From contig JAMYGW020000011.1 in assembly GCA_025617375.2 (NCBI GenBank), positions 868,001 through 932,000 on the forward strand: a stretch of 64,000 bases of DNA. The letters run 5' to 3'. Source of the DNA: Acarospora socialis. Lineage: Eukaryota; Ascomycota; Lecanoromycetes; Acarosporales; Acarosporaceae. Within the stretch, counting starts at the first letter, position 1, and each line of letters opens with the position of its first letter. Below, one piece after another: positions 16,561-53,722 of this stretch. The position numbers and the translations under genes are program-made. The notes beneath the pieces were generated by a model. It was not told the origin of the DNA, searched no databases, and was given only the letters and a program-made list of their open reading frames with translations.

Positions 16561-17466
16561 CGTTTCGCGATTTTGTCGCAAAAAAGCACACCAATTTTCT
16601 AGAAGAACTGACACATATAGAAATGCACCACAACCTCACCTATTTCAGACATTCTCAATAAGCAGATTTGTAAAATGTAAAGAGATCTCTCAAAGGAACC
16701 AAACATCATTGAGGATGATCAGTATGACAAAAGTTGTTGTACAATTACTGTGTTGATGGTGGGGTAGCTTTATTTGTGTCAAAGTTGCACTGAATTTATA
16801 TGTAAAAACGGCAGAATCTGTTGATCACTTTTATACTTAAGCACTTAATATTATATGTATGAAAAGATATATACTCATTTAACAGTTCTGTATACTCAGA
16901 ATTTTCAAAAATACTGTATCTGTTACTGGTTTTGCTGTGCTTACAGTTCTATGTCAAAAGTCTTCACAAGTGGGGTTACCCTACCACAACTCTCATTATT
17001 ATATTATGTATAACTTTACAACAACTTACTGAAGAGTCTTGTAGTTTTGCATAGTAATTAACATTATATAGTACTTAAAATTCTCAATCTCAGTTTCTAA
17101 CTAATATCAAGTGTATCAGTTCTTCACCTCAATAACTGCTTTTACTCTCAATTTCATGCTCTCTATTAACATAGTTAATAACTCATCATTAAGTCTTAAT
17201 CAGACTTTCTTCAAGATCTCAAACAAGATTTTCTGAATCTTCTTGTCATCATTATGTATTTGTTCTATGTTAAAATGAACTTTGTAGATCATTTTCTTGA
17301 GATAAAATCAGAAATATTCAATAGAATTTAGATCAGAACTGTAGAAAGATTGTTTTATAAAAATAATGTTATGCTCTTCAAGTCACAGCTTCACAACATC
17401 AACATTATGAATCAAAACATTGTCATGCATAAAAGTTAAATCAGAAGTTCAGATTTTAAGTAGATT
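16561..17466 (-). mobile_element. Tc1/mariner-type DNA transposon, 3' half (interrupted by Gypsy insertion)
   Basis: Minus-strand remains of a DDE transposase of the Tc1/IS630 superfamily. Just left of the Gypsy insertion the minus strand encodes LTFMHDN (second Asp, about 17420) and SSDLNSIEY (about 17311-17341), matching the family's HDN...SPDLNPIE block with the catalytic Glu, then a helical C-terminal segment down to about 17110. Several in-frame TGA codons break it. Left of this lies a long degenerate inverted repeat (about 16561-17000) that pairs with 25625-25928: shared blocks include CGTTTCGCGATTT, GTGGGGTAG, AAGTTGCACT and TCAAAAGTCTT. Together with the right part the element is about 1.9 kb without the nested insertion, normal for the superfamily. 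Exact ends and TA target sites are uncertain; an inner end at 16759 (GTGGGGTAG) is the alternative. Confidence 0.82.
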
Positions 17467-17666
17467 TGTTATGAATCAGATTAGTCTTGATCTCAGTCTT
17501 GCTTTTGAATGTGTTTCATCAGATTACTTTGCAATCTCACTGATGTCATGAACTTAATGAACTAATTATTAAATATGAAAGACACTCATGAGAGACTTAT
17601 ATGCAGACTTTTTCATAGATAACTTTTAGCAATTACATCTTTCATGAACTCAAATAAATTCTAATA
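17467..17666 (+). repeat. 5' LTR of the Gypsy fossil
   Basis: 200-bp direct repeat partner of 24669-24868, beginning TGTTATGAATCAG and ending TTCTAATA. The 5-bp flank AGATT just upstream recurs after the 3' LTR. Confidence 0.9.
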
Positions 17667-20600
17667 ATTTGATAGCATCAACTTGTACAAATCATTGAGT
17701 CTACAATCATTGATTCATGTCTCAAAATCAGTTATCTTCATACAACATCATGACTTCATCATCAACATCATCAACAGTCAGATTTCTACCTAGTCATCAT
17801 CATCAGTTTCTTCAACATATCAGTTCATCAGTCTCATCAAGACTCAGCTTCTGTTGTCTGTTCAATAACAATGATGATTTTATTGATTAACATCATCATA
17901 TTGTCTCACTTTTCTATTCACTGCTGACATTATCTTACTTGTTCATTCTTATCTATCTCACTTTCTCTCATTACAAACTCATCACTTTCACAGCTTCTGT
18001 TCATAAGTCATTAATTTGATGAAGTTTTCAACAGATTTATCAGCAAACTTATTAGCAAATTCATCAGCAGATTCTAGCACTGTTGTATTAAGTCAAAATT
18101 TATTCTGTCTATCAGACTGTTGTGTATTAGCTGTTTATCAGTTAAAACAGTTTGAATTCATGAATCATCAGTATGTCTTGCTCATATCAAATGACATTGT
18201 TGATTTAGTTCACAGTATCATCACTCTATATTCTACTTCACTGAGATATCAGTTCATTAAGTTGTTCAAAACATATTAAATTTGTGTTAACATCAGTTAG
18301 TCAGATTTGAGTTATTTCACTAGCTGATCACTCATCAAAAGCAGTTTTATCAAGACTATTTATTGTTTCAAGAACAACACAGTATTCATATTGAATCATT
18401 CAGTGTTGCTAATGTAAATCTCATTTCAATTTATTAACAACTTTACTGAGTCAGATCAACTCAATTTCTTCAAAATTGAGTAAAAACTTCACTGATTTCT
18501 ATCTGTGTCAAATCAGTCAGATAAATCTGAATTCACAATATTATCATCACTTCAACTCACATCATCACATGAACAGTCATCTTCAATTATTCATTTCTCT
18601 TCATCAGAATCTTGTTCTCAGACATTTATCTCTGTAAACAAAAGCATTCAGTGTGATTTGTCTCTGCTCTGCAATATGATCAATAATGACAACAATGATA
18701 GTTAACATGATAGTGCTTTTATCATTGACTTTATTTTTTTGAAAACTCAGATGCAAATGCTTTGCAGAATGATTGCACAGACTAAAATAAATGATTGAGT
18801 TAAAAATTGTACTGAAACAGTTAATTTAACAGATTCTCATCAAATATCAAATCTATCTCATCACTCTGAACAGTATTCAGATAGAAGAGATCTATTTTAA
18901 CAATGTTAATACAATTTTAATAACTTTAATGACTCTGATGATTCAACAGATGACTCAGTCTTAAATATATTGAATATGTTCTGTAAATGTCATCTAACTA
19001 ACAAGAATAATTGCTTTTGATCTGAGAAAGTAGAATTCTTTAATTTACATCTTAATATCAAGAACTATAAAACTGAAAATATTGTCAATATTGACAGAAA
19101 GATCTACTTTTGTGATGTTTATCTATTTATTGACTCATTCAAAGATGTTGCTTGCATCAAGACTGATGAAGTTGTACATTAAAATTTGAATAAATGTCTT
19201 TGCAACATCACTCAGAATTGATATATTGAACAGTTCTTCTTCATAGAGAAAGAATATATTCAGAAAGATTAAAAGATTGAATGATGAGAGAAGATGTTGT
19301 TTTGTCATTTTAAATGAACTCAGTCAAATGCAATGAAAGCATTTAAAATGAAGTGTTATACTATTCAGAACATTCAAAACAATCATGAATTGTTGAGCTT
19401 TGTACTGAATGTTATTCAGCATGCAAAGAATACTGAAATAATTAATGTTTCAGTTCAGCTAACATGAATCTGAAATCATCTTGATTTTAGTCTTCATGAA
19501 AGTATTTGATGATTTAATGTCATGATGATGATATCTTCATTTATTAAAGACATGAAGAATATAAAGAAGATGTAGTTTAACAAGTACAATCATTATATTA
19601 AATCTATCAGATCATCTTCATCACAGAATTAATTACAGTGATGATAACAAAATAACAATTTTAATAATTGCTCATTTCATCTGTACAATCAATTTCAAGA
19701 ATTTCAATTTTCTTATCAATTCTATCAGAATAATGCTTACAATCATTCATATCAGTTATATCAATCATATTTATCATATTCATACAACATCAACATAAAC
19801 ATATCATCAACATCTTCACCACAGCAGATTCTCTATCATCAGTCTTTGCAAATCATCTTCAACAATGTTAACTACTCACAAAATAAGTACACTAAGTATA
19901 ATCAAAACAGTCAGAATAATCAATGTTTTTCATATCAGTTTAACTGTTCATATCAATCTGCTCAATTTCAGTCAATATATTACAATAAACTGACTCAGTT
20001 CAAATCTGATGAAGACTTCACTGAAGAAGAATACAATGAAGTAGAATACAATGAGAAATATATTGATGAATATAATTATAATTATAAAGAGAATATTTAT
20101 CAAGCAAATACAAAGAAAGATATGTTTTATGAACAGATCAATCATGTTCATGATGATACTGCTGCTACAAATGAAGTCTTAAACTTATTTAAAGAAATTT
20201 ATTACATCAATACATTTTATACTCATTCTATCACATTTTACACATACAGAATGTGCAAAAATCTTTTTTTCTTCAACAATAAGCTGCATCAGCACATTCA
20301 ATCAACTCATAACAACTTTAAGAACAAGATCAGAGTTAAGCAACTTAGTTTTATCATCTTAAGCATTGATTTTAAGCTTAAGTCAATTTCTGTATTTCTC
20401 TTAACAATAGCTTATGTGAATGTTTATGTTATTGATGTTATTAAATTGAACACAATCAATGTAATTGATGAATCTAACTGCAGTTTTCACAACTGATATT
20501 ACATGATGATATTGTTTCAATTTAAGCTTAATAAAGACTTCAACAAATCTGCATGTCTCAATACAAAATGCATTATGTCATTGCTTGACAGAATTTTTCT

Positions 20601-23600
20601 TCAAAAATATCTATTTAATGTTATTATTATGAAAATGATCAGCAAGATAACAGTATAAAACATTAACAGTTATACACACAAATATCAAAAGTATATTTAT
20701 CTGAGTCTCTATTTATCAGATGTCTTGAAGAAAAAGATTATTATGATTTATATTATGCAGAATATTCATCTTGTTGACAATCTTCAAACTAATCTTTTTA
20801 TCAACATGAATATCATAAAGTCAAAGTGCATAAACATCAATATTCTATTGCAGAAAGTCATTATAGAAGAATGTCAGAACATGTTAGTGAATTTGAGCAT
20901 TACATTATGAAAAAGTTATACTCACTGCATTGTTAAATTCTTCATTAAAATCATGATATCATCTCAATCAGTATAACAAATTGTGATCAAAACTGACAAT
21001 CAGTTTCTTTTTAAAGATAGAAATCTAGAATTTTGTCTGTCTTATTCTGAGACTTTTGAACATATAGTTGACACTAATATGTTTTTTGTTTATGTTCAAA
21101 ATGATCTTTCAAGTTCAATAATACTATCTTAACACATCAGACTAGACATCATCATCAAATACAAAAAAGAAGATTGTTACACAAACAGTATTAAGAATCT
21201 TGAATTTGCAGCTTTGCACAAATCTAAGTTCATTATCAATATATCTGAAACACATCTATCTAATAGCATTATGATCAATGATAATAAGTCTGATGAAGTT
21301 GCTGCACTTACTATTGTCACAAAGACTTATTTAGATCTATGACATGACTGTAGAAAAATGATAAATATATTGAAATCAGACTATCTTCAGATTTCACTCA
21401 AACACAATTAAGAAGACATTAAATTATTAAAACAAGTGTATTCACTCAGCAATGAAGTACATCATCTAGTCAACAAGAAATTCAATAAATTACATGCACA
21501 GAGACAAATGAATTGATTAACTCAATCTATCTCATTTGATTTCTCAGTTTTCATAATCTGAAAGACAGTCATATCTGATGACTTATTCAAATGAAAAGAG
21601 TGCATCATCATGAATATATGTGATCTTAATCACATATCTCAGTCTGATATCTACTCACTGTCATTACAGACTGATATTACATTGACTGTTTAAAAATGTC
21701 ACTATATATTCACAGTGAATTGTGTCTTCTTCTTTTATCAATGACTAGTTAATTCAGTGAATTGCTTTAAGTTTACAGTGATTTTGCATCATGATCAAGA
21801 GTACTTTAATATCACTGTTATGAACTATCAAAACTCATCTCTCTACATACAACAGTAAATGAATAGAATACTCTGTGCTTTTTGTGAATTTGTATGTAAC
21901 TATGTTGACAATATTGTTGTGTTTTCAAAAACACTGAATAAACATGTCAGTTATTTGCATCAAATCTTTCAGTTATTTCAGAAACTGAGCATTAGTCTTG
22001 AATCTAAGAAGTTCTTTCTAAATTACTTTATTATCATACTTTTAAATCAATGAGTAGACACTTTAGAACTTATGACTGTCTTTAAGAAAATTTAGACAAT
22101 AGTGAATCTTCAGTTTTTGACAATACTCAAGATTCTTAAAACTTATCTCAGTCTTATTGACTGATTACAATTCTATATACTTTATTATATTCAAATCACA
22201 GCTTTTCTTCAGACAAGAAAGACAACTTTGATGAAGACTTTGTCAGCAAAGAATAACATCTGAAAACAGCATACTGATCATGTTTTGATTGATATTTTTA
22301 CAAAAAAAAATACAGACTTTTAAGATCTTACAGAATTTATTCACAACTTCTATCTTTCTTGCTCACTTCAACTTTAGTCAGCAGTTATATATAGATGTAA
22401 ATGTGTTCAAGCAGTATGATTTTGATGTCATCATATATCATATTCAAGACAATTCAGATTCAAATTCAGTCTCAGTGAATGCAAAAGTTATGAAATTCTC
22501 ATGTCACAAAATACAGTCTATACTCTTCTTAAGTAAGCTGCTTATATTGACAGAAAGAAATTACTGATTTACTGAGATGAAAATGATCAAATTAGTATGA
22601 ATAATGTATAAAATAAGACATTTAATCAAATCAGCATCTGAAAGCATCATAGTTTTTATGAATCACTTAGTGACAATATTAATTACTCATCAAACTCAAC
22701 TAACTATCATTATCAATATGAACAAATTGAATCTATGACTTGTTCAGATCTCACAATATCTCAGTTAATTTAATTTAAATGTATAACATTATTCAGAAAG
22801 AATTCACCTTATATTAAATGCATTGTTATGACTCTTAGATAATATGAACAATAAGAAAGATAGTATTGACACTTTTAATGATCTAGCTATAAAATTGTAT
22901 TATATCATTCTGATAGAATTAGCAGATGATTTCAAGTAATGACTAAAGAATGTGTACAAAAATGACTCATAATGAAAGTGAATACTGAATATAATTAAAC
23001 TGATGAAGCTATCTTGTCAAAATATCTCAAACACAGCTCATAACAAAGATATCATGAATAAATCAATCAGATTACACTTCACTTATTGAAATGATCTGAT
23101 TTACTACATTAACAATATCAACAGTCATGAGTATTTATACATATCAGTCTGTTTTGAGAAAAAGATATTTAAATTAATGCATGATCAGCAACATCATGAA
23201 GACTTTTATTACACTTATAACTGAATTTCAGTTTCACTTTATTTAAAACAGTTGTTCAAACAACTAAAGATCTATATTGTTCATTGTCTGAATTGTCAGC
23301 TAAATCAGATGAAACAATATACTTTATATAATATCTTACAATCTATATTGACACTGTCAATCTTATTTCATACAATAATTATGAATTTCATACTGACATT
23401 GTCATCAAATAATAAGAGTCTTAATAATCTTCTCATCATCACAGATAAGTTTATCAAATATGTGTTGCTTCTTTCTGAGAAGTTCACATATACTGCAAAG
23501 AACTAAGTAAATACTTTGCTTTTAGATCTCATAAAACATGATTGAAGTATATTTTATCAAATTATCAACAATCACAACAGAAAATTTCTCTCATTCTTCT

Positions 23601-24668
23601 GACATATAATCTTCAAGTATTCAGAAATTAAGTTATTCACTTCAACAACATATCATTCTCAAACAGATGATCAGTTCAAACAAACAAATCAAATAGTTAA
23701 AATTGTTCTGCATTACTATTTTATCTTAAATTCTGATGAAGACTTCATCACAGTGATTTTATATATTTAAGATCATCTCAACAATAGTTAAAATGTCTTC
23801 ACAGATTATGTGTCTAATGAATTGATCTACAAATTCTGCACAAATGACACAATAAGTGCATTGATGAACTTATTTTCTAAGAATTACAGCAAACTTCATC
23901 AAGTTTACTGTGAAGATGCAGAGCAAGCAGTTGTCTTTATAAATGCAATCTTCAAATTTTATTACAACATGAATTACAGATTCATTATCATGAAATCAGA
24001 TTCAATGATTTATTTATATCTATTTTATAAATACATTATATTAGATTTTATAAATCAAAAACTCTCAAATCAATGTGTTGACTCATTTCAAATACTTGAA
24101 CAAATAGATCAGCTAGTTTATCAACTTAAATTATTATTTACTATGTGCATTCATTTCATCATGTTGATCATGCAACTCAAATCTGCTCTGCACAAAAAAG
24201 ACTTTTATAATTATTGATTAGATAAAAATTCATCTTTCATTAAAAATGATGAAATCATCAATAAAATTGAGAACATTGATTCAGTGCTTACTTACAAGAT
24301 CAAATGTCTATTAGATAAATGTATCACACATTACAGATATGATCAATCTATGATGAAATATTTAGTGAAGTGAAAGAACTATAATCATAGTCACAATGTA
24401 TGATATGATGTGAAAGATCTGACTGAGACAAAGAAATTGATAGCTGATTATGAGCAAAGAACAACAACAACATTTATTTAGTTATCACTACAGTCACTGC
24501 ATCATCTATCTGCTATTATTATTGCTCAAAATGATTGAGTTTTGAGCTTTTTATTGAAGACTTCATTATATTTTCTCTTGCTATGTGTTTTTCTTTAGAT
24601 CTCATCAGTGAAGAACTCAGCACAATATTACTCAATAAAATCATCAGTTTTTTCAGAAGAAGACAGAT

Positions 24669-24868
24669 TGTTATAAATCAGATTAGTTTTGATCTCAGTC
24701 TTGCTTTTGAATATGTCTCACTGAGTCACTTTGCAATCTCACTGATGTCATAAACTTAATGAATTAATTATTAAATATGAAAAACACTTATGAGAGACTT
24801 ATATGCAGACTTTTTCATAGATAGCTTTTAGCAATTACATCTTTCATGAACTCAAATAGATTCTAATA
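24669..24868 (+). repeat. 3' LTR of the Gypsy fossil
   Basis: 200-bp partner of 17467-17666. About fifteen substitutions separate the two copies and all that I aligned are transitions. Confidence 0.9.
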
Positions 24869-25928
24869 AGATTATTTCTCAAAATTTTAACATAGAATTT
24901 CATTGAGTATCTCTTCTTCTTAGTCAATGAATTTCTTTTTATTTTGTTCAAGTTTGATCTCTCTTCTTTTCAGAAAGTTTCTTACATCATTACAGACATA
25001 TTCTTGTTCTTAAAAACAGTCTGAATGTTCTTTCTCTTTTACTTATTCACTGAGATGTAAAACATTCATATTCTACTCTTATTCATGTCTCACTTCACAG
25101 AACACTCATCTATTCAGATCACTTTTGTTTAGTTATTAGAAATTTAATTCTTTTGTTTTTTTGTTCAGACAAATCTCTTAACTGCATTTTTCTTCTGTAG
25201 AAGTGAATGTTTTTTTATAAGTTAATTGATGAGTTTATACTTCTTGAGTATTCAATATATTGTTGACTTTAAACAATTAACTCTCATCATCTTGATGAAA
25301 TCTTAATAAATGATTTTAAACTTGATCTGAGCTGTGCATATAATATGTTGTTATTCACAAATAGAACAAGACTTTGAATGATTACTTTGAGACTTGCTGA
25401 CACTGTGATCAAGTTGAAAGATCTGCAAAATTGTTGATTTAATTGTCAATTTGAGCACTAAAAACTTCTTTCAAATTTCTGCAGTACTTGCATCTTCAGA
25501 ATTGTGACTTACAATTAGTTCTCACTTATATGGGGTCAATTTCTTACAATGAGAGAAATTGCTCAATATGAATGTCAATGGGATGCATGACATGATTGTG
25601 GATGGGGAGTAAAGACAGTCACTTCATAATTAATCATGTTGTGAAAGGGTAATTTTGGCTAATTTGCAAAGACTTTTGATGCATGACTGTACATACAACT
25701 TGAGTGCAACTTCAGTGCAGTCAGTCTACCCCACTATGATACAGAAATTCTATGATAACTTTGAATTTTGTTGATCATTTCTGATGAATTTTGATTTTGT
25801 TGAAAGATCTTTTTACACTTGTCAAATCTGTCAACTCAGAAATCTGAACTTATGTGTTGTTGTGGTGTGGTTCTAAAAGTGGGAGTTATTCAGAAAAGTG
25901 GTTTGATTCTAAAAGAAATCGCGAAACG
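24869..25928 (-). mobile_element. Tc1/mariner-type DNA transposon, 5' half
   Basis: Right-hand part of the element split by the Gypsy fossil; on the minus strand it is the N-terminal side of the transposase. Around 25100-25120 the minus strand reads IDECSV, the block holding the first catalytic Asp in fungal Tc1-like transposases. Reading across the removed insertion, the minus-strand frame runs naturally from this part into the LTFMHDN block, which supports a simple nested insertion. From about 25625 to 25928 lies the right inverted repeat, ending in GCGAAACG, the complement of the left end. TGA codons interrupt the frame. The outer inverted-repeat tip keeps its CG dinucleotides while the coding part has lost them. 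Confidence 0.8.
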
Positions 25929-26603
25929 GCTGATGAAACAAGGCTGAACAACTCTCATTTTTCAGCAGGCATGAAACTCAGGAGTCTTGCAAGTAGCCTG
26001 AGCCATCATGTACAACCCTGTCCTACAGTAGCTCCCCAAGAGAAGCTGCTCCTAACATACGGAGTACAACCACATACCTACGGCACAGACTTAGAGATGC
26101 AATCTGAACAATCTGTTAATTTTCAGGGCAGAATCTCAGAGTGTCACAACCCTGGGTTTCAACCCCTCGCCGTCTCATCACGCATCATTCGCCATCAGTC
26201 TACATAGACCATCAAAGGGTCTCTATATCGTTCTATAGCCTGACACAATGTAGGATTTTGGCGTGAAAACAAGAGTCTTACTCAGACATCCATTAGAGAT
26301 CCAGGAGTCAATACAACTGGCTATCTCTTCATAAAAGCATTGACTTTAATATTCGTCTACCATTGTTGGTCCAGTTTTGCACAGCAGAGTGTTCATGCAG
26401 CTGGAGTATGTGGTACGAGGTATAGCATTTCGGCACTGGATAACCTAGGCACCGATCGACAATAATGTTCGAGACCGATTGGATTAGATCATACCAGATC
26501 AACTGAGATTCGTGAGCACAAGTCAGGGAATCAGGTAGAAGTTTTTATGTTATTACTAGTTCTGATATTATTACTAGGACAGGTTCAGGACACCGCAAGG
26601 TTG
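25929..26603. other. Transition from AT-rich island to genes
   Basis: About 670 bases of more balanced composition between the transposon end and the peptidase stop codon. No protein family, RNA gene or repeat recognised. Confidence 0.5.
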
Positions 26604-28738: not shown

Positions 28739-30505
<1,767 letters not shown>

Positions 30506-36277: not shown

Positions 36278-37185
<908 letters not shown>

Positions 37186-42708: not shown

Positions 42709-43715
42709 ATGGCGGTCGGCAAGTAAGTATCAAATGCTCTGGGGAACGGCCATAGGTATGTACCGAAATGTTTAGCTTACCTGACCGGCTTTAGGAACAA
42801 GCGATTGTCAAAAGGCAAAAAGGGCCTTAAGAAGAGAACGCAGGACCCTTTCACACGGAAGGACTGGTATTCAGTGAAGGTCAGATTATCTCCCAAGGGC
42901 TACCCTGGATTTTGCTGACTACCGCCTAGGCGCCGTCTACCTTCCAGATCCGAGAGTATGAGAAACGCCTGACACCGACTCCGTTCGAAGCTAACAATAC
43001 TGCAGTGTGGGGAAGACTCTCGTCAATCGGACGACAGGTCTTAAAAATGCCAACGATGCACTGAAAGGGAGAATCTTCGAAGTGTCATTGGCTGATCTGC
43101 AGAAGGACGAAGACCACGCATTTCGAAAGGTCAAGCTTAGGGTGGATGAGGTGCAGGGCAAGAACTGCCTCACAAACTTCCACGGTCTTGACTTCACATC
43201 CGATAAACTACGGTCCCTGGTCCGAAAATGGCAAACTCTGATCGAAGCCAACATTACGGTCAAGACCACTGATGACTACCTTCTTCGCCTATTTGCCATT
43301 GCCTTCACCAAACGCCGACCCAACCAGATCAAGAAGACCACCTACGCGGCATCGTCCCAGATTCGTGCCATTCGCCGAAAGATGGTCGAAATCATACAGC
43401 GCGAAGCTTCAAGCTGTACTCTATCGCAACTGACAACGAAGTTGATTCCTGAGGTTATTGGGCGCGAGATAGAGAAGGCAACGCAGGGCATATATCCTCT
43501 TCAGAACGTTAGTTATCCCCGTCGTATTCTTGTCTCATCAACCGCTAACCGTATTTACTGAACCGCCACAGGTTCACATCCGCAAAGTGAAACTACTGAA
43601 ATCTCCGAAATTTGACCTGGGCGCTTTACTGAATCTGCATGGCGAGTCAAATACGGATGAGCAAGGTCAAAAGGTGGAGAGGGAGTTCAAGGAAACGGTC
43701 CTGGAGAGTGTATGA
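42709..43715 (+). CDS. RPS1: 40S ribosomal protein eS1 (RPS1/S3aE)
   Basis: Small-subunit ribosomal protein near the mRNA exit site. Exons 42709-42722, 42795-42879, 42930-42955, 43006-43507 and 43572-43715 total 771 nt (256 aa), as expected. The sequence reads [51 protein letters not shown] and so on to [20 protein letters not shown] and ends ETVLESV. The 14-nt first exon and 26-nt third exon are small but give exact frame and near-perfect family sequence. An intron directly after the start region is a common feature of ribosomal protein genes, where it is often regulatory. Confidence 0.98.
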
Positions 43716-44848
43716 GCTGGCAGTTTCACGTCAGGAGGATGTGTTGTCGTTTGCATCCACCTTAAGGAGTATGATGGACCGTAACACAACTCATTAAGTG
43801 CTCAGCTCATGAGCTTGAGAAATAACAGACCACTTCAATCAGATTCTGAGCAAGAATAATTCAGACAAGTTCACGGAGTCGACCTTAGTAACCATAAGCA
43901 TAGTAGCATAGTTCGGACTCTCTCAGCAGCTTCTTCCATCGGCTTCATTACCAGGCTTTGTTGCATCGACAGCGGTCCATATGGTATCCGATGAGTTTGA
44001 TCCTAGGCTCAATGTAATCCTTATCAAGGCCTTCGGTGCTCGTACGCGCCACAGTGCACATTGAGATTCACTCAAATGTCAAACATAAAGTGACTAACCC
44101 TATACCAATCTAAAACTCTAATAAGATACTGCAATGCTCCCTTCGATTTAGTGTCAAACAGCGCAACTATCGGGTTGATTTTGATATATCCTGCGCGCCG
44201 CTTCCTCAAATGACTCCTCGGAAACCACTACCGCGTCCCCTATCGGCTGAATCTCCTTGACACAGCTGCGTAAGGCACATTTCGATACAGGCCCCAACCA
44301 TGCAGCGTTCTGAGATAGCACAGCGTGAATGCCAGCACTGCAGATCAGCTACTAACGCGGCGTTCTCGGTGTCATTGTCGTCTTTGAGCTGTCCAGTCGG
44401 GAGCTTCCAGAGTATGGACCGCTAGTTCGAAGCAGCGTGAGATTAACGCCCTCCGCAGAACGGTCAGACATCCTTTGTGAATAAATCTGCACACTCTGGT
44501 AAGCTGAAGCCCTTGCCACCGTGAGTAGGTTGGAACGGAGTTGAATCGAAGGACCCAATGAGCTGTGTGTATCAGCGAAGCGAAGTCAACTCGAAGCCTT
44601 ACCAGAACTTATCACAGTCCGTTCGTCAAGGTAGTCGACATAATTGTCAACAACCCTCAGCTCATGGCCTCTATAAAGTTGCAGCAATGCGCCCACCTAT
44701 CAGAACGGCAAGGGGATGAGGTTAAATTTATTTTATAGTTGCCATGTCCATGGTTGCGGGTTAGGCTTGTCATAGACACTGACTGAATTGCGCATCTGAA
44801 CGCATGGCTGCTGAGCAATATGTACATGAAGCACCCCGCCCGTGACCT
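43716..44848. other. Intergenic region, nothing recognised
   Basis: About 1.1 kb at a convergent gene pair. Short unassignable frames only (e.g. 44352-44558, minus). No repeat or RNA gene seen. Confidence 0.45.
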
Positions 44849-46025
44849 CTAAGGGTCGTTGTTCTGCAAGAACTCGACCACAGCTGGCAGTGGTCTTTGT
44901 CAGTAACACAGAGCCAATTCGAGCGGGCGAGCTTACCCGTCCTGAACTCCTCCGGCTTTTCCGAGATCACCCAATGACCTGATACAATATCTCTCAGTTC
45001 GAATCTCGGGAAAAATCTTCCAATCAACGGAAGGACATCATCCGCTACGTACGGACTCTCCGTTCCTCGGATGAAAAGAGCTGGCTTTTCAAACCGTGCC
45101 TCTTCGGGATCCCGAAAGGGAAAGTCTCCCATATTGCCAAGCGCTCCGGCGAGAACCGCGATTGGGATTCGAAATCGAAGGAAGTTGGAGTTTGGTGGCC
45201 GGATTAGATTGGTCAGAAGAAACTGGCGTATGGGCAAAGACTTAGAGGATGGTGAGATTACATGTCAGCAAATTGGCGAAGGTATTCTCAGGATGCGCAT
45301 ACACTTTCGTACTGCTTCATGATATCTTCTGCCTCGGTCTGTTTGGTGATTCGTGCATCTTCGATCCTCTTCATGCCTCGGATATAATTTGGGAAGTCGC
45401 TCTTCAGTGTCGCATCCACGGGAGCATTATCGACCGATATCAGAACCCCAACTGTGTCCGGTGATCGCAAAGCTACGGTCATGGCGGTTTTTGCACCCCT
45501 GATTAGTCAGCCTCTGTTGTGCACGTGAGCTGGCTGCAAGGACAAACATCGAGTGCCCAATCAAGACAGGCTCTCGCAATCCATGTCTTTCAATAAACGC
45601 CACGACATCGTCGGCCATGGCACCGTAATCGTGCCTCGGGCTGTGAGGAGAGTCGCCATGGTTCCGTAGATCCTACCACTCGATGAGCGCCCATGTCCGG
45701 CATCTCAGACTCGCAACGACTGACAAGGGCATACACCGGCTTTCGCAGATCCCTCGACAAGACTCTGATGCGCCCGTAGTGAGCAACTGGTGACATTCAT
45801 CCCAGCATGATAATCGTACTTACTAATGCTCCGATTGTTCCTCTTGGAGCCGAATAAGCCATGCATGAAAATGATTGACCCGGTATCTGCTGCGGTCAAG
45901 GTATTCGGCGGTTCGTAGAGGTCGTACACAAGAGGAACATGGCATCGTGCATGCGATGTCGAAACTACCCTCACGCTGGAACGCAAAGGCCTCATCCATT
46001 GCGGAGCACCACCAGCGGCAAGCAT
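44849..46025 (-). CDS. IMO32: Mitochondrial alpha/beta hydrolase, Imo32/ABHD11 type
   Basis: Member of the ABHD11 branch of serine hydrolases, a mitochondrial enzyme in yeast and animals. Start at 46025 gives a basic, acid-free leader (MLAAGGAPQWMRPLRSSVRVVSTSHA), fitting a mitochondrial presequence. Core motifs: PLVYDLYEPP, IIFMHGLFGSKRNNRSISK (oxyanion-hole HGLFGS), DLRKPVYAL, intron, DLRNHGDSPHSPRHDYGAMADDV, then GHSM just before an intron that resumes with KTAMTVALRSPD (the nucleophile elbow GHSMG spans the splice), SVDNAPVD, FPFRDPEEARFEKPALFIRGTESPYV (acid residue region) and the catalytic His in SGHWVISEKPEEF. Ends VEFLQNNDP. About five exons. The catalytic triad appears complete. It is divergent from the GPI-type gene. 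Confidence 0.9.
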
Positions 46026-46452
46026 GAGGTGTGGTGCGTCGGCGGTAGGTTAATGCAGCCTACAAACATTGGATGTCTTTGAAATAAGATTGAGGGCGTC
46101 TTCGCCGGCACGCCCCAGAGCGAGGAAATGGTGGAGCAGGAAGGCCACAACGGCAAATACACGCTAAACCTCAACTGGAACGACTTACCGGAAATCGGGA
46201 ACCGGGAAACGGCGCGCTGTACCCGGATTTCTTCACCAACCTCGAAAGAGTTGCGTCTAGATTGCGGAGTGACCGGGTAGAGCCTCAGCCAGGCCAAAAG
46301 GAGAAACCTTCGAAGAGTTGCGGGCATTATGGTCTTTATAAAGAAGTCAGTCTCGTCCACATTTGTAACCAATTGCCACTTTGCCAATCACCATATCAAT
46401 TCCAACCATCCGCACAATATAGCTTGCTGATTTCTTCCATTGCACTCAAACG
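46026..46452. promoter_or_regulatory. Divergent promoter region IMO32 / secreted protein
   Basis: About 430 bases between divergent starts. A 131-codon minus-strand frame extends upstream of the IMO32 Met but has no family resemblance and is more likely untranslated leader. Confidence 0.4.
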
Positions 46453-47295
46453 ATGAAGTTCCTCTCCACCCTCTCCGCGCTCTTTGTAGCTACCACCACA
46501 GCAACCTACATGTGTCCCGTCTCGCCCTCGTCAGCCGATGCGGCCGCCATCGCCTTCGGGTTATCCGTCCAAAACCTCCTCTCAACCTATTACGCAGCCA
46601 TTCCGATCAACGCCACGTTTTTCTCAACCCTTTCTGCCCAGACAATGACCGACTTCCTCGCCAATACAATGGGCCTAGCTGTCCAAGCCAAGCTCGGTGT
46701 CGTAGCTCTACAGCAGCTGGCCACTTCCACCTCTGTCCCTGTCCAGATGCCGATGTGCAGCTACAGTCTTCCGCCCGTTACTGATGCGCAGTCGCATCTG
46801 ATGAATGCCTATGTCTTGGAAGCGACCATGTGCGGCGCCTTCATCGGGCTGGCCGACTATGTGCAATCTCCCCAGGCGGCTTTTCTGATGGCACGTCTGG
46901 CTGCAGAACATGGAATTCACGCCTCCTACATCGGTAGCCACATGCAGCCGGTGGTTTTCCCCACGAACAGCACCATGCTCACGCCAGCTTTCACTCCCCA
47001 GATGGTTAGCATGACTGGCATGGGGGTTGGATATCTGGGTGCCTACCTGAACAACTGCGTCATGCCGCCAGCGGCACCTTGTGGCGGGAATGTCAATATT
47101 GGGCCTTTGGGGGTCACATTGACTGGTCAGGGGAGCATGAATGTCATGAATGGGAGTGGGGCTGCCACGGGGACCGGGGGGTTGATGTCACCCACAACAA
47201 GTCCAGTACCTTTCACTGGCAAGGCGAGCAGTATGTTAAAGGGAATGGGCGGAGTGGTCGCCGCGGCAGGGTTGGCGGCTGTCTATTTGATGTGA
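46453..47295 (+). CDS. Secreted, probably GPI-anchored protein with ferritin-like helices
   Basis: Intronless, 280 aa. Residues 1-18 (MKFLSTLSALFVATTTAT) form a signal peptide. The body is helical: SADAAAIAFGLSVQNLLSTYYAAIP, TMTDFLANTMGLAVQAKLGVVALQQL, NAYVLEATMCGAFIGLADYV, AAFLMARLAAEHGIHASYIG. This layout resembles the secreted ferritin-like proteins common in Pezizomycotina, with Glu123 and a Glu152/His156 pair; the usual ExxH spacing is not exact, so metal binding is uncertain. A Gly/Ser/Thr-rich linker leads to GKASS and a hydrophobic end (GVVAAAGLAAVYLM), the layout of a GPI attachment signal. Four to five Cys and two Asn-X-Ser/Thr sites (NAT, NST) fit a cell-wall protein. Function unknown. 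Confidence 0.8.
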   Translation: MKFLSTLSALFVATTTATYMCPVSPSSADAAAIAFGLSVQNLLSTYYAAIPINATFFSTLSAQTMTDFLANTMGLAVQAKLGVVALQQLATSTSVPVQMPMCSYSLPPVTDAQSHLMNAYVLEATMCGAFIGLADYVQSPQAAFLMARLAAEHGIHASYIGSHMQPVVFPTNSTMLTPAFTPQMVSMTGMGVGYLGAYLNNCVMPPAAPCGGNVNIGPLGVTLTGQGSMNVMNGSGAATGTGGLMSPTTSPVPFTGKASSMLKGMGGVVAAAGLAAVYLM

Positions 47296-48145
47296 GGTAT
47301 AGAAGTGGTCGTCGAGGAGTAAATATATTGAGACCTTGTCCATACTTATCAATATAATTCCAAAGTAAACCTTGGAAACACAGACCCATTTGCGGTTCAC
47401 TCTGGGTCTATTGAGCTAGATGTGACTCAATAATTCCAAGGGGACGCAGAGATCCTGTTCGATCCCTTCAGAACTCAAGTGTATAATGCAGCATTTATTG
47501 CAGTGCAGGCTTGTCGTATGCGTTGATTTCTCCAGTATCCTGTTATCCCCCTGCACCAACAGACCCCACCTCATTATTATAAGGGGTAAAAGACTTTGGT
47601 ATACCATGCGCCCACATAAAAGACTCAGATAAACAGCAATTCAAAGGACTTGCTACTGTCTACAGACACTGTAAGTCCCAATACCTATCATCAAGAATAG
47701 ATTACTAGAATAGATTTATGACAGTGTGAGATATGACAATGCACAAACTGTTTAATTATTCATCGGCAAGTTGGGAGACAGCTCAGCTATTTTGACTCAG
47801 AAAAAAGTGAAAAAGCAGCTCAGAGCTAGATTTTAGCTGTGTATACTTGCTCTGAGTGCTTTGAGCTGACTCTGAGCTGCTTAGTAAGCTTATAAAATAT
47901 ATATTTTATTTATATTGTATATTACATCATATATTACAAATTACTAAAATTATAATTCAGCTATACACTAAGCTTTATTCTTAATTGCTTAGTGTAAAAA
48001 CAACACTAATGCTCTAATTAATGAGTCATCAACACTAGTGCATTTATAATTTCAATTTTTTTTTTTAAAAACAACCACATACAAGAACAAGCACTTTTGA
48101 AATTCAGAAGATAATTCAGAATATAAAGCACTTTAAATATCTATT
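47296..48145. other. Boundary into the second AT-rich island
   Basis: GC falls from about 47640 on. Contains AGCTCA/TGAGCT-rich sequence (about 47775-47885), a perfect 9-bp inverted repeat ACACTAAGC..GCTTAGTGT (47965-47995, 13-base loop) and two direct copies of AACACTARTGC (48002-48012, 48031-48041). Possibly a degraded small DNA element; no coding potential. Confidence 0.5.
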
Positions 48146-48159
48146 TACACATTAGACAG

Positions 48160-48646
48160 GGGTGGTCAAGTGGTATAGTGAATGTATATTGCTTGGGTGA
48201 CCTAAGAAATTAAGCAAAAAACTAGGAAAGTAGTGACCCCACTAGTATATCACTTAATTTCAAAGGTCATGAGTTCAAATCCTGCACCACTCACCAAAAA
48301 CTCAATCATCAGGTCATTCAGTTGTATAAAAAAAACAAGTGATGAAAATTCTACAGATCATAGTTGTCTATAAAAAGACACTATACACACAATCATTTAT
48401 CTATTATTTAGACACCAAACCTCAAATTTTCTTAACTATTGATCACTGAGACCCACAAACAGGTTCACTACTCAGAAGTGATCAATAAGTAATCAGAATT
48501 ATCAGAATAAATCTGTAATTCATATATTACACATATGAATTTGTCAGAATAAATCTGCATATTTTCAACAAATACTCTAACACAAGTCTGTCATAATGTA
48601 TATTGTTGAATATAGACTATAAAATGAAGAATAAATAAATATATAA
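48160..48646 (+). mobile_element. tRNA-derived SINE with LINE-like 3' end
   Basis: A 487-bp insert bounded by a perfect 14-bp target duplication TACACATTAGACAG (48146-48159 and 48647-48660). The head has a polymerase III A box TGGTCAAGTGG (48163-48173) and B-box-like AGTTCAAATCC (48272-48282). The first seven bases GGGTGGT can pair with ACCACTC (48286-48292), which is followed by ACCA, like a mature tRNA end. The A-B spacing of about 100 is longer than in a simple tRNA, so an insert or intron is present and the head is not a functional tRNA gene. The last about 185 bases (48461-48646) resemble the 3' end of the LINE at 61381-61536, including CAGAAGTGATCAA and the 17-base tail ATGAAGAATAAATAAAT. 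The SINE retains GG and CC, so it landed after the surrounding sequence was mutated. Confidence 0.78.
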
Positions 48647-48828
48647 TACACATTAGACAGCAATTCTCAAACTATTTAATGATTAAACTCATAATAATGA
48701 TTATAAAGAAGACTGTTGAAGCATAAATAATATATTATTAAGATATAACTCACACAACAACTCAGAAAAATCAAGTTAAAATTACACTAAATTAACTCAT
48801 TAAAACATCTCATCACATTACAGAAGAT

Positions 48829-49006
48829 ATTACAATCTATTTGAGTCTATGAAAGATGTAATTGCTAAAAATCTATCTATGAGAAATTCTGACTATATAT
48901 CTATAGAGATTTCTTTTATATTTAGCACTTTAACTCATAAGCTCATAATGACAACAAGATTACTAAGTGATCTGAAATCTGTAATCTAATGAAAAGTGAT
49001 ATTGCA
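48829..49006 (-). mobile_element. Solo or truncated LTR remnant, same family as the 17.5-kb Gypsy LTR
   Basis: The plus strand reads TATTACAATCTATTTGAGTC.. and AAAGATGTAATTGCTAAAA, the reverse complement of the end of the 200-bp LTR at 17467-17666. Similarity extends about 170 bases and fades near ATATTGCA. It is strongly diverged and truncated on one side. It lies in opposite orientation to the Gypsy fossil on its right, so it is not that element's LTR. Confidence 0.65.
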
Positions 49007-49320
49007 CAGAATCACAATCAAATCAGCTATCAAAATTCTGAATAGAGCAAATTCTTGCTTTCATTCACTTCTATAAATTACCTTCAGTCAAAAACTCAAA
49101 ACAACATTTCAGACATCAACATCACCACAATCAATGCATTTTTGAAAAATCTGAATTGACAGTTTTCTTTGCCTTGATCTCTTCTAAAATTCATACTATT
49201 ACTGCTTTTTGATATCTTCATTGCTCACAAAGTTGTTGAACTGTTTAGTTGTACCCCTTAGTATCTAGATTTTTGAAGTTCACAAATTTTCACTTAATTT
49301 TCTTAACTTGCTTGTTACAA
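49003..49320 (+). repeat. Mutated copy of the LINE-associated segment at 54537-54923
   Basis: Direct repeat, about 310 bp here against about 385 bp there; the right copy has about 75 extra bases after ATAAATT. Shared blocks include GCTATCAAAATTCTGAATAG and TGTACCCCTTAGTATCTAG. Many differences are CC to TC, CG to TG/CA or GG to GA, all lost in this left copy. Probably a fragment of LINE untranslated sequence; an LTR relationship was considered and judged less likely. Confidence 0.65.
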
Positions 49321-49329
49321 CCATATCTA

Positions 49330-52300
49330 AAGAGAAAGAAACTCACAGATTTATGATCAGAAATTCACTCAAAGTGCATACAAAGAGAACTGCTAGACAG
49401 CAGTCACATGACAGCACAATGACTCAACAGCAAGCAGATGAGCTGAGAGCTCAACTTCTCAATGTTGAGACATCAAAACACTGAGAGTGCTCAACACAGA
49501 GACATTGAGCACATTCTATATAGTAGAGTCATTTCTCTTATGAAAACAATCATGTTCAACTTAAATAATCATCTAAGAGTTAAAGATCAGAACTGTTTCA
49601 GATCAGTCATTATATTAATAAGCACAAACTCTTAGTTCTACATATCTGAGAAATCTCAGATTAGAATGTTACACTTTGAACATTCTTACAATATAACAAG
49701 TATGATGTCTGACACACAGAAGAACATCTCAACTTCATTTTTGAGATAAACTCAGACAAATTCATCTCTATCATCTACTCTGAATAGAATGATGACACAA
49801 TCAGTGATGTCAGTCTCAATGATACAACTACTCTCAAGTGCATCAAAGATACAGATATCAGATATCTTTGATGAAGAGAGAGAGAAGTTGCAAGTTTTTG
49901 TGATTAAGCTCAATCTGTATATTGAATTCAATCAATTAAAGTTTCAAATCAATCAAGAGAAGATATTGTTTGCAACAATCTATCTAGTGAATGCAGTCTT
50001 TGATTGAGTCAATTTTAAGTTGCATGAGTTTCTAGAAAAGAAATACAAAGAACACAATGCAGACATGAAGTCTATGTTCAATGACTATGTATGATTTAAG
50101 AAAGAATTAAGAAAAGTCTTCAAAGTAATTGATGAGAAAAGAACAGCAAAGAAACAAGTTTACATCTTGTGACAGAGTGAATCAGCAGCAGTATATGTCA
50201 CAAAGTTTCAACAGTTAGCAACACTTATCAGATGAGACAATGAAGCACTCATCTATCAGTACTATTGTGAGTTGAGAAAGTTCATCAAAGACAAGATAGT
50301 CTGAGCAGAACAATCAGACAATCTTCAGAAAATGATTAATCTGAGTATCAACATTGACAGTCATCAATGAAAGTGACAGATGAAACAAAAAAAGTATTGA
50401 ATGTCATCTATGATAGAAGATCAAGAAGAAAGCTTTCAACTGTGAATGAAGCAATACATTTCATCAATAAGACATAGAGAAACAGACTCTATAAATCTCA
50501 ATACAATTAAGAAGTGTCATCAGAAGTCATGAAAGACTAAATAAACAGAGCATGAATGTCAGTCAGAGCAGTTCACTAAGTCTTAGATGACATCACAAAA
50601 CAAAATATGAATGTATTACAACTGCAGAAAATTCAGACATCTTGCTTGAGAGTGTAACAGATCTCAGATGAAAAGAAAAAACATTGCAGTGATAGTTAAA
50701 AAGAATACATGCATAGTGCATGACACTCTCAGCTGAACAGTCTGTTACAATGACATGTGCAGAGTACACATGAGCACAAAAAATAAAGTCAAATAATATC
50801 TTCAGAGACTACACAAAGACATGAAGAACTGATATGACATGATGAGTTGATCAATCTATGAAAAAGAATTAGCTACTCTTATCAAGAAAAAAGTTCTTGA
50901 TGCTGAGAAAGAAGACAATGTTCTCAAAGATGACATCAAAAAAACTGATGATCATGAATTTCAGATTGATGAATCTTGAATATTCTTCAATAGCAACACA
51001 CTTACAAAAAAAAGTTCAAACAATGCTGAGACAGAACTCTTGAGAGAGTATTAAGCAAAGATTAAGAGAGATCTAAGTGTTCAGAGAGAAATGACACAAG
51101 ATTGCAATACAACACAAAAAAACAAGCAAGAAACTCAAAATCAGAAAGCAGAAGTATGCAAAGAATTTAATAATCTAATAAGAAATGTACAGACAGTCAT
51201 GAGAGAATCAATATCAGAATCTCTTGTGTGAAAAATCAAGAGTCACAAGATTGAGATATGCTTATCTGAAGAGTATATCATGCAGAATGAAGACAGATGA
51301 ATCTTCAGTGAGAAATATATATCATCTGAATTTCTGCAAAGAGTAAGAGTCTTTGAGAGTTAGTTGCAGATAAAATACAATCAATATGAACTCTGACTAC
51401 ATTCAGAAAGACACATTGAGCAATACAGTCTAAAGTATGTGAATTTTATGATCAGAAGAAAATCAAGATGATTTTAAGAACTTTGAAGATAAGCTGAATG
51501 ATCAAGTGAGTCAAAAAACAAAAAGCTTTCTTGATGAGACTAGAGAACAAGAAGCTAGTGACATCTCAAAGACAAGACAATAATTATTGAATATGAATCA
51601 AAATTATGATCAACAAACATCAGATCAATACATTAATGAATTTTGAAGTGAACAGTAACATTATGAATCAAAAAATAATCAACATGTTGAAATTAGAGAC
51701 ACAGTAAGTGCACTGTTCATTCAACATACAAATGATGAATGAAGTCATCAAAAGAATTGATGAGAAAATCTGTGTGAAAGTCTCAATTCTTGAAAACTCA
51801 CAAGAAATAACATTTAATGTTATGAAGTCAATTGAATACAACATGATACTAGAAATGCTCTGATTGCACAGAAGAAATTTAAGAATCAATTGAGTTATAA
51901 AAGAGATATGTGCAATCAAAGACACATATAAAATCTCTAAACAATCAGAGATGAGCTTATCAGAGTATAAGTCATGAGATCATGAAATATCACTATTGAA
52001 TGAAAAGCAATCTAAGTGAATGTCATTATACTCAATGAGTGAGAATCAACTCAAGAAAGTTAGAACTTATCTTGATGAGAATCTTAAGAGAGAATTCATA
52101 AAATCATTAAAGTCATCAGCAGAATATTTGATTCTGTTTATGTCAAAGAAGAATGACAAAAAATGATTATGTGTTGACTACAGACAACTCAACAAGATAA
52201 CTCATCAAGATAATTATTTTCTATCACTGATAGAAGAGTTACAAGATTAATTAAACAAGACTAAGTAGTTCACAAGCTTAGATCTGAAGAACATTTACTA

Positions 52301-53722
52301 TCAAGTCAGAATGAAAGAAGATAAAGAATGAAAGACAGCATTCTGAATAAGATACAGACACTATAAATACACTGTCATGTTATTTAAACTAAAAAATGCT
52401 TCAGTCATCTTTCAGAGATTGATCAATGATATATTAAGAGAATATCTCAATGATTTTGTGATCACATATCTTAATGATATTCTGATATACTCAGAAGATC
52501 TTGAAGAGTACTGCAAGCATGTACACAAGATATTGACAAAGCTCAACAAGAGAGTCTTGTACATGAAAAAGTCAAAAAGCAGGTTCAAAATCAAGAAAAT
52601 TGAATTTCTAAACTATGTAATTCAATCTGAACAGATCAAGAAAAATTCAAAGAAGATAAAAGCAGTCAAAAACTGATCAACATCAAAATAAATCAAGAAA
52701 GTACAAGTCTTTCTAGAGTTGACAAACTATTATTGAAAGTTTGTATCAAATTATGCAAGAATTGCAAAATCACTGATGTGTTTGATGCACAAAAGCAAAA
52801 AATAACATTGAAATCAGAAGCAGAAGAATGCATTTTATGTATTAAAGAGAAGTTTTAGTGAAACAGTACATCTGAGAATACTCAACTCAGCATGCAAGAA
52901 GACACTGAAAACTGATGCTTCAAATTTCACAGTAAAAGCATGTTTATATCAGATCAAAAATGAGTAACAGAAATTTATAGTGTATCAATTTAGAAAGCTA
53001 TCAGAACTCAAGAAAAGATATGAGATTCATGATAAGAAACTTCTTGTAATAGTAAAAGCACTACAAGATTGAAGATCTTATCTCACAGAAACAAACAAAT
53101 CAATTCAGATCTATACAGATCACAAGAATCTGAGAAACTTCACAATGATAAAGCAACTCAATTGACAACAGATTTGTTGAATAAAGCAGTTGACAGATTA
53201 TGAATTTCAGATTCATTACAAGAAAAATAATAAGAATAATGAAGCAGATGTCTTGAGCAGACAGTTTAATCACAAGAGTATACAGACAATACACATCAGA
53301 ATTCTCAGCAAAGACAACAACAAAATTCTCACAAAAAACTTAGCAGCAACATACAAGATGAAGTAAGCTCTCTTGACAGACAAAGAACTTATTGAAATGT
53401 GTCACTACAGCAGAGTCAGAGAACACTTAGAAGTTAAATGCATCAAAGATTTAATGTAAAGAAGACACAATATCAGCAATTTTAGAAATTGAATCATCAA
53501 AATGATCACTGTGTGCAATTCATGTCAAAGAAACAAGATCAGTCAAGATAGACAGTATGATGAAGTAACATGACTAGATGCATTGAATGCATCATGAGAG
53601 TCAGTTACTATGAACTTCATTATGAAGTTATCACTGTCAAAGAACTCAGCATGAAAAGTGAGATTCAACAGTATATTGATCATAGTGAATAGATTAATCA
53701 AGTACACAATGTTCATTTTGAT
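49330..53722 (+). mobile_element. Second Ty3/Gypsy retrotransposon fossil, truncated
   Basis: Plus-strand remains of gag with a zinc-knuckle-like cluster (about 50.61-50.67 kb), a protease region, reverse transcriptase (about 52.05-52.68 kb), RNase H (about 52.88-53.25 kb) and the zinc-binding and first core part of integrase (about 53.39-53.72 kb). It stops abruptly at 53723, where LINE sequence begins, so the 3' end is missing. It belongs to a different Gypsy lineage from the 17.5-kb element, judged by its reverse transcriptase and gag. Terminal repeats were not identified with confidence. It is broken in very many places and nearly free of GG, CC and CG, so it is an old insertion. Confidence 0.88.

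What the first reader, a model, noticed from the sequence alone, without database searches (positions are those of the whole stretch)
16561..53722. Unusual hypermutation signature: GG/CC and CG eliminated, CA/TG spared
In the old repeats (16.6-25.9 kb and 48.8-53.7 kb) the dinucleotides GG, CC and CG are almost absent: I read no instance in 17161-17760, and only a few per kilobase around it. CA, TG, CT and AG remain abundant (runs of TCATCATCAACATCATC). Classical RIP targets CpA and produces TpA, so it would remove exactly what is kept here. The data fit C to T where the next base is C or G. CpG-biased RIP-like decay has been described in some fungi, but a joint CpC plus CpG preference is not a pattern I know as standard. 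It would imply a cytosine deaminase or methyltransferase pathway with a different context. Genes flanking the islands, less than 200 bp away at FAP7, look unaffected.
Basis: partly seen in the sequence, partly recalled or inferred. Interest (0 to 1): 0.88.

Follow-up and report, generated by a model that had tools for sequence, protein, structure and literature searches.

The report
Transposons stripped of CC and CG
In this fungal DNA the old transposons have lost almost every CC, GG and CG pair while nearby genes keep theirs, which points to a repeat-targeted mutation process with an unusual but previously reported preference, one that standard detection indices miss.

Summary
Three zones (17128-25531, 48463-49004, 49322-53737; 13,362 bp) hold 4 CC/GG/CG dinucleotides where base composition predicts about 812. 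CA/TG is enriched, TpA is not, and gene blocks are near normal. Copies show recent action: between the youngest LINE copies, C/T differences fall at 11 of 129 CC sites, 2 of 449 CA and 2 of 363 CT (Fisher 1.7e-7). The first C of CC changes, so the 3' neighbour sets the target. Less decayed DNA has lost more CpG than CpC. The host is a filamentous ascomycete. Best reading: RIP-like mutation of repeats with order CpG > CpC >> CpA, CpT. CpC comes last in Neurospora and Trichoderma. There is a precedent: a 2022 Coccidioides review reports repeat-induced mutation "especially affecting CpG and CpC". The species is unidentified and no genome is held, so RID/DIM-2 could not be tested. Measured here: near-total erasure, survival only after a 5' A, loss of every Pro, Gly and Trp codon from one pol frame, and blindness of TpA-based RIP indices.

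The parts
17128..25531 (.). Exhausted zone 1: 8,404 bp with 3 CC, 0 GG, 0 CG. Covers an LTR retrotransposon plus 338 bp (left) and 662 bp (right) of the DNA it sits in
17466..17667 (.). LTR, left copy (92% identical to the right copy; no CC, GG or CG)
24668..24869 (.). LTR, right copy
21859..22050 (+). Stop-free piece resembling reverse transcriptase (Pfam RVT_1 E 3.9e-4, below the curated cut-off)
16561..16573 (+). Outer edge of island 1: 13-bp terminal inverted repeat that still holds CG
25916..25928 (-). Matching 13-bp terminal inverted repeat at the other edge
16561..17127 (.). Partly decayed outer part of island 1 (CC O/E 0.65, CG 0.34)
25532..25930 (.). Partly decayed outer part of island 1 (CC 0.85, CG 0.24)
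15969..16397 (-).
47640..48462 (.). Partly decayed block (CC 0.72, CG 0.05)
48463..49004 (.). Exhausted zone 2: 0 CC, GG or CG in 542 bp
49005..49321 (.). Partly decayed copy of 54539-54930 (CC 0.41, CG 0)
49322..53737 (+). Exhausted zone 3: Ty3/Gypsy element remnant, 1 GG and 0 CC or CG in 4,416 bp (its last 17 bp already match the LINE copies)
52020..53735 (+). pol reading frame, 572 codons: no Pro, Gly or Trp codon; 20 in-frame stops (13 TGA, 6 TAA, 1 TAG)
52347..52673 (+). Reverse transcriptase piece (Pfam RVT_1 E 5.4e-12; PDB Ty3 RT 4ol8 E 6.7e-15)
52812..52964 (+). RNase H-like piece (RT_RNaseH_2 E 1.5e-6, just below the curated cut-off)
53738..54538 (+). LINE RNase H fragment next to the Gypsy remnant: CG 0, CC 0.74
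54539..55400 (.). Less decayed copy of 49005-49321 followed by further sequence (CC 0.85, CG 0.54)
57365..61351 (+). LINE ORF2 frame: 1,329 codons, 10 in-frame stops (8 TGA, 1 TAA, 1 TAG near the end that may be the natural stop); RVT_1 E 2.1e-28 in its 58646-59719 piece
58610..61086 (+). LINE copy A, arm of the inverted pair
61524..64000 (-). LINE copy B, inverted arm; 11 differences in 2,473 aligned positions, 6 of them transitions, 5 of these CC/TC; the sixth and the 5 transversions sit at the frayed end
17789..17790 (+). Surviving CC (context ACCT)
19819..19820 (+). Surviving CC (context ACCA)
22807..22808 (+). Surviving CC (context ACCT)
52582..52583 (-). Surviving GG, read as ACCT on the minus strand

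Best explanation
The islands are dead transposable elements in a filamentous ascomycete, decayed by a RIP-like process. A repeat-directed activity turns C into T on either strand when the next base 3' is G or C. CpG goes first, CpC second, and CpA and CpT far less, until almost no CpS site is left. Shown here: the context, both strands, the first C of CC as target, sparing of the genes in the window, the deeper loss of CpG than of CpC, and recent action at CpC. Inferred: that it is directed at repeats as such, that a RID/Masc1- or DIM-2-type cytosine methyltransferase provides the 3'-neighbour recognition, and that the process runs around mating.
For: Erasure: 4 CC/GG/CG in 13,362 bp against 812 expected; genes spared. 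Recent copies: CC 11 of 129 sites changed, CA 2 of 449, CT 2 of 363, CG 0 of 6, Fisher p 1.7e-7 for CC against the rest. Direction: of the 15 C/T differences pooled, 11 have C on the 3' side and none is a C preceded by C with A, T or G after it; in the older 49k/54k pair 1 of 27 is such a CC-to-CT change. Order: in 10 of 10 zones that are not exhausted, CG O/E is below CC O/E. Simulation: running 'C followed by C or G' to exhaustion on gene-block DNA gives CA 1.74, GA 1.62, AG 1.32, GC 0.99, close to island 1 (1.59, 1.46, 1.16, 0.89), whereas five rival rules misplace at least one dinucleotide badly. The LTR pair differs by 16 transitions and 0 transversions in 198 aligned positions, so the loss was not slow general decay. 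The two LTRs read TCAGA and CTGAG at one place, two alternative end states of the same rule. Of 20 stops in the pol frame 13 are TGA, and Pro, Gly and Trp codons are gone from it. Precedent for CpG plus CpC in Coccidioides.
Against: No enzyme gene, mating context, copy number in the genome or methylation could be examined. The simulation leaves TpA too low (0.41 against 0.54-0.67) and GC too high (0.347 against 0.272-0.310), so some CpA/CpT loss or an AT-richer start is needed; started from LINE DNA, which already lacks CG, it cannot tell the CpS rule from CpC alone. The exhausted LTR pair differs at CA and CT sites (7 and 9) and 6 of 20 stops in the pol frame are TAA, so the preference is not absolute. 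CpG loss could be a separate, older process: the 6 CpG in the recent LINE pair are unchanged. Only five pairings of a few copies in one window were compared.
Confidence: 0.72

Rival explanations
1. Two separate processes: CpG methylation followed by deamination of 5-methylcytosine over long times, plus a distinct repeat-directed process acting on CpC.
For: The LINE block has CG O/E 0.04-0.12 but CC about 0.74; between recent LINE copies CC sites change most often, and the 6 CG present are untouched. Amselem 2015 assigns CpG signatures to a Masc2-like methylation route (PMC4352252, passages).
Against: Partly decayed zones form a graded series with CG always below CC (10 of 10), which one enzyme with a graded preference also gives. 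0 of 6 CG changed cannot be told from the CC rate of 11 of 129.
Confidence: 0.2
2. An AID/APOBEC-type deaminase acting on single-stranded DNA or cDNA.
For: CC is a known APOBEC3G context (recalled); C to T with few transversions fits any deaminase.
Against: The changed base is the first C of CC, so the 3' neighbour matters; APOBEC3G changes the second C (recalled). Simulating second-C loss plus CG gives AG 1.73, GA 1.22, GC 1.57, unlike the islands. CC and GG are both erased, so it is not confined to one cDNA strand.
Confidence: 0.03
3. Classical CpA RIP.
For: Decay of repeats beside intact genes and the fungal host fit RIP in general.
Against: CA is enriched (1.58-1.61), TA is not raised, and composite RIP indices are -1.03 and -1.12. 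Simulated CA loss gives TA 1.80.
Confidence: 0.01
4. Not mutation: AT-rich foreign or naturally CC/CG-poor elements, or a sequencing artefact.
For: The islands are AT-rich (GC 0.27-0.31).
Against: A copy of the same sequence in the window still holds CC and CG at sites where the older copy has TC, TG or CA. A pol frame with no Pro, Gly or Trp codons and 20 stops cannot be working DNA. The edge of island 1 keeps CG.
Confidence: 0.02
5. Exactly the process already reported for Coccidioides, because the window comes from that genus or a close relative (not exclusive of the best explanation).
For: Same dinucleotides (PMC9409882). TE GC of 28-39% is reported there (PMC5872316); here 27-36%. Filamentous ascomycete host.
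Against: No test of the genus was possible: the PDB hits only place the host nearer to two filamentous ascomycetes than to the yeasts with solved ribosomes (organisms recalled). Gene-block GC of 0.50 against the 46% whole-genome average quoted for Coccidioides is not informative.
Confidence: 0.45

Closest known systems
CpG/CpC repeat-induced mutation in Coccidioides (PMC9409882, passages and section 18 part 1 seen; the original study, looked up under a recalled DOI, was not held)
   Same: Repeats, mostly Gypsy, mutated especially at CpG and CpC
   Different: The passage is one sentence. Completeness, order, 5' effect and direction are measured here; whether the species is the same is unknown
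Canonical RIP of Neurospora crassa (RID-dependent, premeiotic)
   Same: C to T on both strands, repeats decayed, genes spared
   Different: Target order CpA>CpT>CpG>CpC there (PMC5496416, passages); here CpG>CpC>>CpA, CpT
RIP in Trichoderma reesei
   Same: CpG strongly used
   Different: CpA about equal to CpG, and CpC last (PMC5496416, passages)
CpG-type TE mutation in Tuber and in basidiomycetes (Microbotryum TpCpG)
   Same: CpG loss in TEs
   Different: No CpC among the signatures listed (CpA, CpT, CpG; PMC4352252, passages)
Hypermutation in Rhizoctonia solani AG8
   Same: C/T changes at CpG; its Table 2 gives the shortest spacing for CpC (214 bp in the whole genome)
   Different: Genes and repeats affected alike; the authors describe it as CpG-biased (PMC4014442, section 10 read)

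Membership tests
RIP (repeat-induced point mutation) | C:G to T:A transitions on both strands | tested here: met
   LTR pair: 16 transitions, 0 transversions; CC and GG both erased
RIP (repeat-induced point mutation) | Confined to repeated DNA, genes spared | tested here: inconclusive
   Met within this window: gene blocks CC 0.89-0.93, CG 0.92-0.94. Copy number in the genome not testable
RIP (repeat-induced point mutation) | CpA as preferred target (usual, not universal) | tested here: not met
   CA enriched, TA not; CA changed at 2 of 449 sites
RIP (repeat-induced point mutation) | Depends on RID, acts in the sexual cycle | not testable with these tools
   No genome held
CpG/CpC repeat mutation as in Coccidioides | CpG and CpC especially affected in repeats | tested here: met
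   against PMC9409882
CpG/CpC repeat mutation as in Coccidioides | Host is Coccidioides or kin | not testable with these tools
   Only filamentous ascomycete could be supported
CpG methylation and deamination alone | CpG lost, CpC kept | tested here: not met
   CpC O/E 0.00-0.01 in exhausted zones; the simulated CG-only rule leaves CC 1.02
APOBEC3G-like deamination | Second C of CC changed (recalled) | tested here: not met
   Changes are CC to TC in the LINE pairs; 1 of 27 in the older pair is CC to CT; poor simulation fit

The most novel reading that the evidence does not exclude
A RIP enzyme that reads a strong (C or G) base 3' of its target, with a 5' brake at A, so that its preference is close to the reverse of Neurospora RIP. 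It runs nearly to exhaustion and deletes Pro, Gly and Trp codons from invaders. Genomes that use it score as RIP-free by TpA-based indices, so such decay may be widely overlooked.
Probability: 0.35. Interest if true: 0.7.

Novelty: new member of a known kind. Interest (0 to 1): 0.48.

Why it matters
What sets the dinucleotide choice of RIP is an open question. A fungus whose order is CpG > CpC >> CpA, CpT, with CpC second where Neurospora and Trichoderma put it last, gives a natural contrast for locating the specificity in the methyltransferase. In practice, the composite RIP index is more negative in these islands (-1.03, -1.12) than in genes (-0.54, -0.43), so surveys based on TpA would call the most heavily mutated DNA here unmutated. 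A CpC index, (CC+GG)/(TC+GA), separates them: 0.0025 and 0.0014 in the islands against 0.72 and 0.83 in genes.

Tried and rejected
Genome-wide test: no genome is held for the window. Relatives of the LINE RT and the Gypsy RT piece in viral contigs: none confirmed. Rfam: 0 matches at gathering score. Identifying the species: the RPS1-like protein is nearest 7r81, then 5oql, among 54 PDB sequences at E up to 1e-40 (that these are N. crassa and C. thermophilum is recalled, not printed by the call); myosin and UPRT hits were not informative. TIR pair as a further mutation record: the arms beyond 13 bp are degenerate (87 transitions and 93 transversions in a forced alignment of 417 positions), so they were not used. 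A Tc1/mariner-like transposase in the outer part of island 1 was suspected by eye from the minus strand at about 17160-17400; no profile search was made of it, and it is left as a suspicion. Integrase-like pieces 23225-23503 and 23603-23767 had no meaningful Pfam match. LINE pieces 55845-57005, 57057-57431, 59999-60511 and 61043-61345 had no Pfam match.

Literature: all 10 paper searches used; one search listed one paper with the phrase 'CpG and CpC'. Passages of PMC5602860, PMC13297926, PMC3828140, PMC5555474, PMC3017866, PMC7862722 and PMC3248453 were seen and named no CpC preference; PMC3828140 does report that CpA is not reduced in repeats of one nematode-trapping fungus. Clutterbuck 2011 and two papers tried by recalled DOI are not held, so earlier mention of CpC there cannot be excluded.

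Rows dropped before counts: the pooled rates use 53721-54500/60549-61328 and 58610-60548/62062-64000 only, to avoid counting the RNase H stretch twice; columns next to gaps are skipped, and unchanged C sites whose 3' neighbour differs between copies are left out of the denominators. In the 49k/54k pair 8 or 9 changes are transversions and the ends are uncertain; three sites that read TG in one copy and CA in the other are counted under CA (6 of its 9).
Full report
OBSERVATION. In 17467-24868 there are 3 CC/GG and 0 CG; in 49330-53722 there are 1 and 0. Gene blocks stand at CC 0.89-0.93 and CG 0.92-0.94 of expectation. Together they hold 4 CC/GG/CG in 13,362 bp against about 812 expected from base composition. 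The longest distance between two such pairs is 3,261 bp. TpA, the product of classical RIP, is not raised (0.53-0.68 against 0.66-0.76 in the gene blocks), while CA/TG (about 1.6) and TC/GA (about 1.5) are.

ANATOMY. Island 1 (16561-25930) has a 13-bp inverted repeat at its edges (16561-16573 and 25916-25928). Inside it lies an LTR element with 202-bp LTRs 92% alike and a weak reverse transcriptase match below the curated cut-off. The second island holds a Ty3/Gypsy pol remnant; its RT piece matches Pfam RVT_1 (E 5.4e-12) and the Ty3 RT structure (E 6.7e-15). From about 53721 on there are LINE sequences (RVT_1 E 2.1e-28 in 58646-59719), including an inverted pair of 2,477-bp arms. The exhausted DNA changes abruptly there: no CC/GG/CG lies between 52582 and 53738, and many follow. 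That is as expected if the LINE DNA arrived later. Between the two islands, genes with ordinary composition are present: UPRT, WAPL, ribosomal S3Ae, peptidase C78 and others. The FAP7-like exon begins 163 bp from island 1, and that spacer is little depleted (19 against 23.7 expected).

CHANGE BY CHANGE. Pairs of copies in the window give the direction. In the LINE RNase H pair and the inverted arms, the CC differences read CC against TC, so the first C is the one that changes. Pooled without overlap, C/T differences fall at 11 of 129 CC sites, 2 of 449 CA sites, 2 of 363 CT sites and 0 of 6 CG sites (Fisher for CC against the rest, 1.7e-7). In the older pair 49003-49322 / 54537-54931, CC differs at 8 and is unchanged at 6; CG differs at 4 and is unchanged at none; CA and CT differ at 9 and 6 and are unchanged at 40 and 31. 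Three sites read TG in one copy and CA in the other, as expected where a CG was lost on opposite strands, and they account for 6 of the 9 CA entries. One of the 27 changes is CC to CT. The LTR pair shows 16 transitions and no transversion in 198 aligned positions, all at CA or CT as counted (7 and 9). Part of these are alternative end states of lost CC/CG runs, such as TCAGA against CTGAG, and part are plain CA or CT loss. That is a minor component against a pure CpS rule.

ORDER AND 5' EFFECT. Across the 10 zones that are not exhausted, CG O/E (0-0.54) is below CC O/E (0.23-0.85) in every one. In the LINE, the chance that an NC is followed by C, relative to genes, is 0.72 after A, 0.75 after C, 0.35 after G and 0.48 after T; in the partly decayed zones it is 0.53, 1.68, 0.20 and 0.20. 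All 4 survivors in the exhausted zones have A before the CC, three of them ACCT. By 5' neighbour over all 3' contexts, the recent LINE differences are TC 10 of 324, AC 2 of 271, CC 1 of 129, GC 2 of 223. So a 5' A goes with survival and a 5' T with change in both kinds of data; a 5' G looks favoured in composition but not in the recent copies.

MODEL TEST. Letting 'C followed by C or G' run to exhaustion on gene-block DNA gives CA 1.74, GA 1.62, AG 1.32, AT 1.00, GC 0.99. Island 1 has 1.59, 1.46, 1.16, 1.02, 0.89. CG-only leaves CC at 1.02; CC-only leaves CG at 1.50; second-C-of-CC plus CG gives AG 1.73 and GC 1.57; a 5'-neighbour rule removes GC; CA-only gives TA 1.80. The model is not perfect: it leaves TpA at 0.41 (observed 0.54-0.67) and GC at 0.347 (observed 0.272-0.310), so some extra CA/CT loss or a more AT-rich start is implied. 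Started from LINE DNA, which already lacks CG, the CpS and CpC-only rules give nearly the same table.

CONSEQUENCE FOR CODING. The rule hits CCN, GGN, CGN and TGG codons. In the 572-codon pol frame 52020-53735 there is no Pro, Gly or Trp residue, and 13 of 20 in-frame stops are TGA (6 TAA, 1 TAG), yet the RT piece is still recognised by profile. LINE ORF2 has 10 in-frame stops in 1,329 codons, 8 of them TGA; the last, a TAG, may be the natural stop. The six in-frame stops that copy B carries in its ORF2 frame all have a counterpart with the same neighbouring codons in copy A, so those probably arose before the two arms separated, and CC changes went on afterwards.

MECHANISM. A target set by the 3' neighbour on both strands, in repeats beside spared genes, is what cytosine methyltransferase-linked RIP produces. 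APOBEC-type enzymes read the 5' side (recalled). I therefore commit to a RIP-like process with preference CpG > CpC >> CpA, CpT, most likely through a RID/Masc1- or DIM-2-type enzyme (inferred, untested). The main rival is two processes, older CpG methylation decay plus a CpC process; the untouched 6 CG in the young LINE pair leave it open.

LITERATURE. Passages seen unless stated: RIPCAL defines CpC to TpC as one of four possible types, and finds CpA dominant in Stagonospora nodorum (PMC2621366). N. crassa CpA>CpT>CpG>CpC and T. reesei CpA~CpG, CpT>CpC (PMC5496416). Amselem 2015 lists only CpA, CpT and CpG signatures in ten genomes (PMC4352252). R. solani AG8 Table 2 has the shortest spacing at CpC, although the authors speak of CpG (PMC4014442, section 10 read). 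The decisive find is PMC9409882 (passages; [quoted passage not shown] The original was not held (recalled DOI), nor was Clutterbuck 2011. The context is therefore not new to science. What is added is its measured completeness, order, direction, 5' effect and coding effect, and the failure of TpA-based indices.

SPECIES. The RPS1-like protein is closest to 7r81 and then 5oql among 54 PDB sequences; that these are N. crassa and C. thermophilum is recalled. This supports a filamentous ascomycete and no more. If it is Coccidioides or kin, the finding is already known in outline; otherwise it is another member of that kind.

Noticed in passing
58610-61086 and 61524-64000: Two LINE stretches in inverted orientation, 2,477 bp and 99.6% alike with 437 bp between, running to the window end; copy A carries a counterpart of each of the six in-frame stops of copy B, suggesting DNA-level duplication (or an assembly fold-back) rather than two insertions.
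   Followed up: partly
16561-16573 and 25916-25928: Terminal inverted repeat keeps CG sites although the interior has lost every one; the outer 400-570 bp of the island are only partly decayed.
   Followed up: partly
17160-17400 (minus): Looks by eye like the end of a Tc1/mariner-type transposase; no profile search was made of it.
   Followed up: no
54539-55400: Stretch with CG O/E 0.54, the highest of the repeat zones measured, next to LINE sequence at 0.00-0.07.
   Followed up: no
48447-48644 and 61367-61538: Short matches (56 bp at 73%, 26 bp at 92%) suggest a second LINE tail at 48.4-48.6 kb.
   Followed up: no
46453-47295 (+): Gene with a Ferritin_2 domain beside the second island.
   Followed up: no
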